DNA of 40,006 bases. Origin: Lysobacter sp. yr284. GTDB lineage: Bacteria; Pseudomonadota; Gammaproteobacteria; Xanthomonadales; Xanthomonadaceae. Of the stretch, positions 3,001-6,000 are shown piece by piece. Positions within the stretch are counted from its first letter, which is position 1; the number at the start of each line of letters is the position of its first letter. The stretch covers positions 1 through 40,006 of the forward strand of contig NZ_FNPT01000009.1 in assembly GCF_900107375.1 (NCBI RefSeq). Direction: 5' to 3'. The notes under the pieces are model-generated. The model was given only the letters and a program-made list of their open reading frames with translations. It was not told where the DNA came from and searched no databases. A program made the translations under genes and the position numbers.

Positions 3001-6000
3001 CGGTGCGCCGGTCGCCAACGCCGCGCTGCACGTGCTCGACGACGCGCTGGAACCGGCGCCGCTGGGCGCGGTCGGCGAGATCGCGGTGTCCGGCCCGGTG
3101 GTAGGCCGCGGCTACTTCCACCGTCCCGAGGAAACCCGCGCCGCGTTCGTCGCCAACCCGCACGCCGCGCACGAGCGCGACGGCCGCCTGTACCTGACCG
3201 GCGATCTCGGCCGGCGCCTGGGCGACGGCCGCATCGAATACGTCGGGCGCAAGGACTTCCAGGTCAAGATCCGCGGCTTCCGGGTCGAGCTGGGCGAGAT
3301 CGAAAGCGCGCTGGCCCGGCATCCGGCGGTGCGCGAGGCGGCGGTGGTCGCCGCCGCGGGCGCGCACGAGGGCAAGCAACTGGTGGCCTTCGTGGTCGCC
3401 GCCGCGCCGGTCTCGCCGGACACGCTCAAGCTGCACCTGCAGGCGCTGCTGCCCGACTACATGGTGCCGGCGGCGATCGTGCTGGCGCAGGCGCTGCCGC
3501 TCAGCGCCAACGGCAAGGTCGACCGCGCCGAACTGGCGGCGCAGACGGTGCGCGCGCAGGCGCGCGGCGAACGCGCGCCCAACGGCCGCATCGAGGTCGC
3601 GCTGGCGCGCATGTGGCAAGACCTGCTGCAGCTCGAACGCGTGCACCGCGACGATCATTTCTTCGAGCTCGGCGGCCAGTGGCTGCAGGCGATGGGCCTG
3701 CTCGCGCGCCTGCGCCGCGAACTCAAGGCCGAACTGACCCTGGCCGCGCTGGGCGAGGCGTCGGTGCTCAAGGATATGGCGCGCACGGTCGGCGAGGCGC
3801 TGGCCGGACGCGGCCCGGCGCGCACCGCGCGCGAACCGGGCTGGACGCCGCTGGCGCTGCCGGCGCTGCGTCGCTGGCAGTTGCAGCGCGAGGCCGCGCG
3901 CACCCGCCACGCGACCTGCGCGCTGCGCCTGGACGGCGGCTTCGACCGCGCCGCGCTGGACCGCGCGCTGCAATTGTGGGCCGCGCGCTTCGACGCGCTG
4001 CGCCTGCGCGTGGCCGAATTCGACCAGGAACCGCTGCGCGCGCCGGTGGCGGCGCCGATGGCGGCGCTGCAGTTCGCCGACCTGAGCGGAGCGCAGGATC
4101 GCGAGGATGCGTTGGCCGCGCACATCGAGCAGGCCGCATGCGCCGGGTTCGATCTGGCCGACGCCGCGCCGTTGCGCGCGAGCCTGCTGCGCCTGGGCGA
4201 GCGCGAGCACGCCCTGGTGCTGGTGGTGCACGCGTTGGCGGCCGACCACTGGCAGCCCGAGCGCGCGCTGGCCGAACTGGCCCGGCTGTATCACCAGGCC
4301 GCCGAAGGCGAGGGCGATGCGGTCGGACCGGCGCCGCCGGCCGCGGCCGAAGCGCCGGCGCTGGCCGACGAACACGCCGGCTACTGGCGCGAACGCCTGG
4401 CCGCGGCGCCGGCGCTGATCGAGCTGCCGCTCGACCGCGCCCGCCCGTTGCGCCAGGACGATGAAGGCGGGGTGGTGCCGCTGCGCCTGGACGCCGCGCT
4501 CGCCGCCGCCGCGCGCGCGCTCGGCGCCGCCCACGGCGCGAGCCTGGAAACCGTGGTGCTGGCCGCCTGGAGCGCGGCGCTGGCGCGCCTGTCCGGGCAA
4601 TCCGACTTCGTCCTCGGCCGCACCCGCGCCGACGCCGCGCGTGGCGACGCGCCGGCCGGCGCGGTCGATCTGCACGCGCTGCGGATCGAATTGGCGGAGG
4701 CGGCCGACGTCGCCAGCTGGATCGCCGCGCTGCAGACCCGCATCGACGTCGACGCGCTGGCGCCGGCGAGCCTGGCGCAGGTGGTCGAAGCGGCGCAGCC
4801 CGCGCCGACGCTGGCGCACACGCCGTTGTTCCAGGCCGTGTTCGACTGGCGCGGCGTGCGCGCCGACGCGGTCGCCCTCGGCGACTGCGCCGCGCGCCTG
4901 CAACGCCTGCCGCGCGCGCGCGCCGGCTTCGAGCTGGCGCTGGAGCTGGGCGAAGGCGAGGGCGGCCTCAGCGGCGCGCTGATCTACGCCCGCGCGCTGC
5001 TGGACGCGGCTACCGCCGAACGCTGGGCCGGCTATCTCGAACACACCCTGCGGGCGATGATCGCCGACCCGGCCGGCGCGGTCGCGCGCCTGGACGTGAT
5101 CGGCGCGCGCGAACGCGAGCAGCTCTTGCTCGACCGCGCCGGCGCGCGCCGCGACTATCCGCAGCAGCTGCGCCTGCACGACCTGTTCGAGGCGCAGGCG
5201 CGCGAGACCCCGTACCGGATCGCGGTCACCGCCGACGACGGCGTGCTGACCTACGCCCAGCTCGACGCCCGCGCGAACGCGCTGGCGCGCTGGCTGCGCG
5301 AGCGCGGCGTGCGCGCCGGCACCCGCGTGGCGCTGTGCCTGGAGCGCGGCGTGGACATGGTGGTGGCGCTGTACGCCACGCTCAAGGCCGGCGGCTGCTA
5401 CGTGCCGCTGGACCCGGACTACCCGCGCGACCGGGTCGCCTGGATCCTGGAAAACAGCGCGCCGCCGGTGGTGCTGACCCACGCCGCGCTGGTGCCGGCG
5501 GCGCTCGAAGGCCTGCCGCTGGACGGCATCGAACTGCTGTGCATGGACCGCGAGCGCGAGTGGATGGACTACCCGCAGCATGCGCTGGCGGCCGAAGACG
5601 ACGACGCCCAGCCGCACGACGCCTGCTACGTCATCTACACCTCCGGCTCCACCGGCCGGCCCAAGGGCGTGGTCAACGAACACCGCGGCGTGGTCAACCG
5701 CCTGCTGTGGATGCAGGAGGAATACGGCCTGGGCGAACGCGACGCGGTGCTGCAGAAGACGCCGTACAGCTTCGACGTCTCGGTGTGGGAATTCTTCTGG
5801 CCGCTGATGGTCGGCGCCAAGCTGGTGATGGCGCGGCCGAACGGGCACAAGGACCCGGCCTACCTCGGCCAGGTCGTGCGCGACGCCGGGGTGACCACGC
5901 TGCACTTCGTGCCCTCGATGCTGCAGGTGTTCCTGGCCATCCCCGAGGCGGTCGCCGGCTGCGGCCGCGTCGCCCGGGTGATCTGCAGCGGCGAAGCGCT

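What the first reader, a model, noticed from the sequence alone, without database searches (positions are those of the whole stretch)
3660..3700. Carrier domain with Trp in place of the phosphopantetheine serine
The second visible T domain reads FFELGGQWLQAM. The motif is otherwise intact, but the Ser that takes the 4'-phosphopantetheine arm is Trp (TGG, 3680-3682). TCG to TGG is one base change (3681), and TCG is the Ser codon used at this place in the three other T domains of the protein. This module cannot hold a substrate in the usual way. Together with the damaged C domain after it, this points to module skipping, known in principle from myxochromide S assembly, where a carrier is not primed.
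Basis: partly seen in the sequence, partly recalled or inferred. Interest (0 to 1): 0.8.

Follow-up and report, generated by a model that had tools for sequence, protein, structure and literature searches.

The report
Peptide-factory module with unplugged carrier
One station of a bacterial peptide assembly line has lost the anchor for its building block and, in the next domain, the bond-forming site, yet a second species keeps the same state, so the line most likely skips that station.

Summary
In detail: the carrier at 3599-3787 reads FFELGGQWL, with TGG (3680-3682) where the window's other three carriers have TCG. It is not a sequencing error: the one ortholog found, in another species of the genus (G019), has the same Trp. 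It is rare: 81 of 82 carriers read in the own genome have Ser, as do 337 of 339 in 79 named loci (one Ala, one cut). The next condensation domain, C5, is degenerate too (HALAAD for HHxxxD): T4-C5 departs from 25 of 58 near-invariant columns, against at most 4 in 34 relatives. A4 before it keeps the five motifs checked. Yet T4-C5 is under purifying selection between the two species (dN/dS 0.235, 0.154-0.347). Best reading: A4-T4-C5 is a silent A-T-C unit, and C4 joins the chain on T3 directly to the residue on T5. This works like known module skipping, but here the downstream C domain is lost as well. No product is known, so the skipping is inferred.

The parts
425..619 (+). Carrier T3 (GGQSLL, Ser codon TCG 512-514), presumed donor of the chain in the bypass
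   Evidence: PF00550 62.2 bits; codon
686..2014 (+). Condensation domain C4, HHIVTDAW intact (His codons from 1079), presumed to make the bypass bond
   Evidence: PF00668 382.2 bits; motif
2069..3556 (+). Adenylation domain A4, five core motifs checked and present, pocket contexts as in A6
   Evidence: PF00501 268.2 bits; motifs; pocket contexts; dN/dS 0.151
3599..3787 (+). Carrier T4 without attachment Ser; also lacks the conserved Phe of the third helix (Gly here, Arg in G019)
   Evidence: PF00550 34.9 bits; columns 30 and 54 of alignment A2
3680..3682 (+). TGG (Trp) codon at the phosphopantetheine Ser position
   Evidence: same in G019
3833..5116 (+). Degenerate condensation domain C5
   Evidence: PF00668 144.6 bits against 382.2 and 351.3 for C4 and C6; 23 of the 25 departures lie here
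4229..4249 (+). C5 active-site motif HALAADH (HALAADG in G019): Ala (GCG 4232-4234) in place of the second His
5144..6676 (+). Adenylation domain A5, five motifs present, Ser-like pocket (name of the code recalled)
   Evidence: motifs; contexts
6731..6919 (+). Carrier T5 (GGHSLL, TCG 6809-6811), presumed acceptor in the bypass
   Evidence: PF00550 57.8 bits; codon
6989..8326 (+). Condensation domain C6, HHIVTDEW
   Evidence: PF00668 351.3 bits
8384..9841 (+). Adenylation domain A6, 69.7% identical to A4
   Evidence: PF00501 257.6 bits; identity
9899..10084 (+). Carrier T6 (GGNSIL, TCG 9980-9982)
   Evidence: PF00550 57.1 bits; codon
13445..15034 (+). Diaminobutyrate transaminase of EctB type downstream, a possible precursor supplier
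   Evidence: TIGR02407 621.6 bits, cut-off 552.2

Best explanation
The stretch A4-T4-C5 is a silent A-T-C unit inside an otherwise working PKS-NRPS assembly line. T4 cannot take the 4'-phosphopantetheine arm because Trp stands where Ser should be. C5 most likely cannot condense because it lost the second His and many other conserved positions. The chain on T3 is therefore joined by C4 directly to the residue on T5, and the product lacks the residue of module 4. The protein stretch is kept folded, probably as a spacer that holds C4 near T5. Shown by sequence: loss of Ser, loss of the C5 motifs, A4 motifs present, the same state in two species, purifying selection. Inferred: the bypass, the spacer role, the missing residue.
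For: Trp at the Ser position in both species. C5 motif HALAAD in both; the second His is missing in 9 of 387 resolved C/E domains, 2 of the 9 being these C5 copies (54 further hits had a gap there). T4-C5 departs from 25 of 58 near-invariant columns in each ortholog; 34 relatives depart from at most 4, median 1.5. C4, C6, A4, A5, A6, T3, T5 and T6 of the window keep the motifs checked. T4+C5 dN/dS 0.235 (0.154-0.347), neutral ratio rejected at p about 7e-13 by a simple binomial test, no indel there. The gene is open over 7556 codons in G019 and over both contig pieces here.
Against: No product is known and nothing shows that C4 accepts T5. A4 is as constrained (0.151) as A5 (0.153), which is odd for an unused A domain. 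Only two species carry the locus among those searched. For T4 alone the interval is wide (0.030-0.615). A review passage says that changing the second His does not always abolish activity in certain C domains (PMC11546977, passages).
Confidence: 0.6

Rival explanations
1. A4 is not idle: it loads another carrier of the line (T5 or T6) across the silent T4-C5, so that its amino acid still enters the product, at another place or as an alternative to the A5 residue.
For: A4 keeps the five motifs checked, its pocket contexts equal those of A6 and its dN/dS is close to that of A5. In fungal HcpA, with order C2-A4-A2-PCP2, the authors take A4 as passed over at position 2 but deduce that it works non-linearly with a distant C4-PCP4; as an alternative they name another A domain loading two carriers (PMC4041764, passages).
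Against: T5 and T6 each have their own A domain with motifs present; crosstalk over a carrier and a C domain inside this protein has no direct evidence.
Confidence: 0.17
2. C5 (with T4) has become a docking platform for a tailoring enzyme, in the manner of the X domain of glycopeptide synthetases, which is also a C-like domain that does not condense (recalled).
For: C5 lost catalytic motifs but is under purifying selection. X-domain structures are among the structural matches; for 4tx2 TM is 0.70 by query and 0.78 by target length. A cupin-type enzyme frame lies in the cluster.
Against: PCP-C didomains and C-A structures rank higher by E-value (their TM by target length is not comparable, since they carry further domains). 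C5 is internal, not before the terminal domain. No P450 match in the 12 distinct window frames, which reach to 31837 only.
Confidence: 0.1
3. The whole synthetase is on its way to becoming a pseudogene and makes nothing.
For: Two lesions stand next to each other. C5 has a somewhat raised dN/dS against C4+C6 (0.241; Fisher p 0.06). The terminal domain is divergent as well (DHLIWDG; 29.9 bits, under the cut-off of 30.6).
Against: The reading frame is open in both species, and the C, A and T domains before the terminal domain, apart from T4 and C5, keep their motifs and are constrained. C5 is not the least constrained part: two front stretches reach 0.29 and 0.32, and the A3 end in the window 0.36.
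Confidence: 0.1
4. Sequencing or assembly error.
For: The window begins at a contig end, and the gene is split between contigs C15 and C18.
Against: Same Trp and same C5 motif loss in the one-contig genome G019; the place is 3.6 kb inside the contig.
Confidence: 0.01

Closest known systems
Module skipping in myxochromide S assembly (Stigmatella)
   Same: One internal NRPS module is passed over and the product is one residue short (passage in review PMC4849084). That its module-4 carrier is not primed is recalled; the original papers were seen only in reference lists.
   Different: Here the attachment Ser itself is lost and the following C domain is also degenerate, so the silent unit is A-T-C and the upstream C domain must make the bond. 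In the review's version of myxochromide S the intermediate is transferred to PCP4 and elongation goes on with alanine from module 5.
Fungal tetrapeptide synthetase HcpA (fungisporin)
   Same: Two A domains in succession before one carrier (C2-A4-A2-PCP2), the first taken as passed over at that position (passages in PMC4041764).
   Different: In HcpA no T-C pair is reported between the two A domains, a C-PCP pair stands at the N-terminus and is thought to work with the passed-over A domain, and the enzyme is fungal. Here a degenerate T-C pair remains between A4 and A5.
X domain of glycopeptide synthetases (e.g. 4tx2, teicoplanin)
   Same: A C-fold domain without condensing activity inside an NRPS (recalled); found among structural matches.
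   Different: PCP-C didomains and C-A structures match with better E-values; C5 is internal; no P450 partner was seen in the window frames scanned.
A-T-C exchange units of NRPS engineering
   Same: The silent stretch has the borders of such a unit, leaving C4-A5-T5 as an ordinary module (concept recalled; one search gave a listing only on this term, and passages of PMC8097286 treat exchange units in evolution).
   Different: Here the unit is not exchanged but kept in place and silenced.

Membership tests
Functional NRPS elongation module (C-A-T) | Adenylation core motifs | tested here: met
   A4: TSGSTGTPKG, NAYGPAE, YLTGDL, GRKDFQVKIRGFRVELGEIE, NGKVDR
Functional NRPS elongation module (C-A-T) | Carrier fold with Pfam PP-binding match | tested here: met
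   34.9 bits, cut-off 20.8; model of T4-C5 from a 36-row alignment, mean pLDDT 85.5, first PDB match a PCP-C didomain
Functional NRPS elongation module (C-A-T) | Ser that takes phosphopantetheine | tested here: not met
   Trp in both orthologs
Functional condensation domain (C5) | HHxxxDG motif with second His | tested here: not met
   HALAADH / HALAADG; 25 of 58 conserved T-C columns differ
Module skipping as in myxochromide S | Internal carrier that cannot be loaded | tested here: inconclusive
Module skipping as in myxochromide S | Product lacks the residue of that module | not testable with these tools
   No product known
Module skipping as in myxochromide S | Downstream C domain intact (recalled) | tested here: not met
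   C5 degenerate
X domain | Place in the last module before the terminal domain (recalled) | tested here: not met
   C5 lies between T4 and A5, with modules 5 and 6 after it
X domain | Recruits P450 enzymes (recalled) | not testable with these tools
   No P450 family match in the 12 distinct window frames scanned; binding not testable

The most novel reading that the evidence does not exclude
Assembly lines can keep a catalytically dead A-T-C unit under selection as a built-in spacer or docking block: the module was silenced by losing the carrier Ser and the next C domain's active site, and its fold is maintained because the upstream C domain needs it to reach the carrier one module further on, or because A4 still serves a distant carrier.
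Probability: 0.3. Interest if true: 0.65.

Novelty: new variant of a known kind. Interest (0 to 1): 0.5.

Why it matters
A natural case in which an NRPS module is silenced by loss of the attachment residue itself, together with the C domain that would use it, would show how an assembly line can shorten its product without cutting the gene. Two species carry the same silent unit, so one product structure would test whether C4 can hand the chain over a whole silent unit. It also warns tools that predict products by counting modules: a carrier that still matches PF00550 over its cut-off may carry nothing.

Tried and rejected
Sequencing error: rejected by the second species. Recent unconstrained decay: rejected for T4+C5 by dN/dS, with the limits that Nei-Gojobori counts ignore transition and codon bias and that two sequences give one comparison; T4 alone has only about 12 changes (8 silent, 4 not) and a wide interval. 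A wider set of Trp carriers in the family: a DNA pattern gave 15 places in 14 of 395 genomes, 13 of which did not score with a carrier HMM. More orthologs: among the 19 other genus genomes only G019 has a near-identical match. In one search (149 family genomes, the window's own included and G019 not among them; list cut short) no listed full-length match outside the window's own gene exceeds 46% identity, and that one is in the own genome; partial matches reach 54%. In GTDB genome contigs the best of the 79 loci kept has 38% (the tool says the window's own and very near genomes may be left out there). The 65% match in G006 lies in another synthetase frame whose three carriers found by regular expression have Ser. 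A tblastn against plasmid records gave only matches under 60% identity. A single-sequence fold gave a useless model (pLDDT 39.8). The good model rests on an alignment of Ser-bearing relatives, so it shows compatibility with the fold, not proof of it. The pocket code of A4/A6 could not be named: a word search for my reading of it found no paper. Ten paper searches showed, in listings and the passages opened, no described natural NRPS carrier with Trp for Ser; they cover only the open-licence library and match words, not meaning.

Full report
What is there. The window starts inside a large NRPS gene: frame 2-11626, 3874 residues, cut at the contig start. Its missing front part is on another contig, C15, whose last open frame (3636 aa) is 93.7% identical to the front of the ortholog. 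The ortholog in G019, another species of the same genus with a one-contig genome, is a single frame of 7556 residues and 95.3% identical over the window part. Reading both, I see the order (partial C)-A1-T1-E-C2-A2-T2-E-C3-A3-T3-C4-A4-T4-C5-A5-T5-C6-A6-T6-terminal C/E-like domain; the naming of E against C among the front domains is by eye from the sequence. Upstream on C15 stands a polyketide synthase frame with KS, KR, DH and ACP domains and a RhiE-like linker; no acyltransferase matched in the 4136 residues scanned of a frame that one search gives as 5401, which suggests, but does not prove, a trans-AT hybrid line. Downstream are an ABC permease, an EctB-type diaminobutyrate transaminase, a cupin-type enzyme frame, a HlyD-RND pump pair and a thioesterase.

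The carrier. T4 has Trp at 3680-3682; T3, T5 and T6 have Ser coded by TCG, and so do the five other carriers of the G019 protein. T4 otherwise keeps the FFELGG-x-x-L pattern; its only other departure from columns at least 95% conserved is the Phe of the third helix, Gly here and Arg in G019. It still scores as a carrier, 34.9 bits with Pfam and 63.7 bits with a model from 55 own-genome carriers (built, score). That model was built from Ser-bearing carriers, yet it recognises T4, so it is not blind to such cases. Base rates: 81 of 82 own-genome carriers have Ser (11 of the 93 places were not read); 337 of 339 in 79 named loci have Ser, one Ala, one cut.

The domain after it. C5 has HALAADH (G019: HALAADG) where C4 and C6 have HHIVTDA and HHIVTDE. 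Over T4-C5, 58 columns are at least 95% conserved in 34 relatives (32 of the 79 named loci and the window's own T3-C4 and T5-C6). Both orthologs depart from 25 of them, 2 in T4 and 23 in C5, in 23 of the 25 with the same residue or gap. Tested the same way with itself left out, no relative departs from more than 4 columns, median 1.5. C5 has also lost the YADYxxWQ and IGFFVNT motifs, partly by short deletions. A review passage notes that changing the second His does not always abolish activity (PMC11546977), but here the losses go far beyond that residue. Since the departures are shared, most of them are older than the split of the two species.

The domain before it. A4 keeps the five core motifs checked. 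Its pocket contexts match those of A6, and the two domains are 69.7% identical, as C4 and C6 are 62.3%. A4 thus looks able to activate the same amino acid as A6. A diaminobutyrate supplier in the cluster makes a basic residue a fair guess for A4 and A6, but that is a guess. A5 reads as a Ser-type pocket (recalled code).

Selection. Between the two species dN/dS is 0.151 for A4, 0.160 for T4 (0.030-0.615), 0.241 for C5, 0.147 for C4, 0.102 for C6, 0.153 for A5, 0.113 for A6 and 0.230 for the terminal domain. T4+C5 gives 0.235 (0.154-0.347), with 69.2 silent and 46.8 changing differences, far from the neutral ratio (p about 7e-13, simple binomial), and no indel. C5 is slightly less constrained than C4+C6 (Fisher p 0.06) but not less than parts of the front half (0.29 and 0.32). 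So the stretch lost its chemistry before the two species parted and has since been kept as protein.

How it most likely works. Without Ser, T4 cannot be primed; without the C5 active site nothing should be condensed onto T5 from T4. The simplest working line is that C4 takes the chain from T3 and the amino acid from T5. The silent part is then exactly A4-T4-C5, an A-T-C unit, and C4-A5-T5 acts as the module. I give this 0.6. The rivals are that A4 loads a carrier further on (0.17), that T4-C5 is a docking platform (0.1), that the line is dead (0.1), and an error (0.01).

Comparison with what is known. Passing over a module is known; a review passage describes it for myxochromide S (PMC4849084), and the original papers were seen here only in reference lists. 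Fungal HcpA has the order C-A-A-PCP with the first A domain passed over at that position; its authors also deduce that this A domain serves a distant carrier, which would be a parallel for the first rival here (PMC4041764, passages). In myxochromide S, as I recall, the downstream C domain works; here it does not, so the borders of the silent unit differ. By structure the T4-C5 model matches PCP-C didomains first, with X domains further down. I therefore file it as a new variant of a known kind, working like module skipping, with membership unproven until a product is known.

Limits. The genus is not named by the tools.

Noticed in passing
window 1 and G000:C15 end (L055, L056): The synthetase gene is split between contigs C15 and C18 in this assembly; G019 shows it whole, 7556 aa.
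   Followed up: yes
window 10139-11623: The synthetase ends in a divergent C/E-like domain with DHLIWDG in place of HHxxxDG, and Pfam shows no thioesterase in the protein; its Condensation score of 29.9 is just under the cut-off of 30.6. How the product is released is open.
   Followed up: partly
window 13445-15969: EctB-type diaminobutyrate transaminase (over the TIGR02407 cut-off) followed by a Cupin_8 enzyme frame: possible precursor supply and tailoring for this line.
   Followed up: partly
L055 183-12593: Upstream trans-AT-like polyketide synthase frame with three KS domains and a weak Condensation match (38.7 bits, profile 192-451 of 456) at its end, while the NRPS also seems to begin with a partial C domain.
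   Followed up: no
L120 (Sulfidibacter corallicola), frame +1: A carrier with Ala in place of Ser (GGHA) near the end of an NRPS frame, the only other resolved non-Ser carrier found in the 79 named loci.
   Followed up: no
L069 and L089: C-like domains with SLDALIVDAAS in place of HHxxxDG in two named loci, another possible set of non-condensing C domains.
   Followed up: no
window 22239-30615 (-): A penicillin-binding protein with BiPBP_C next to a bacterial alpha-2-macroglobulin, an ordinary pair outside the cluster.
   Followed up: partly
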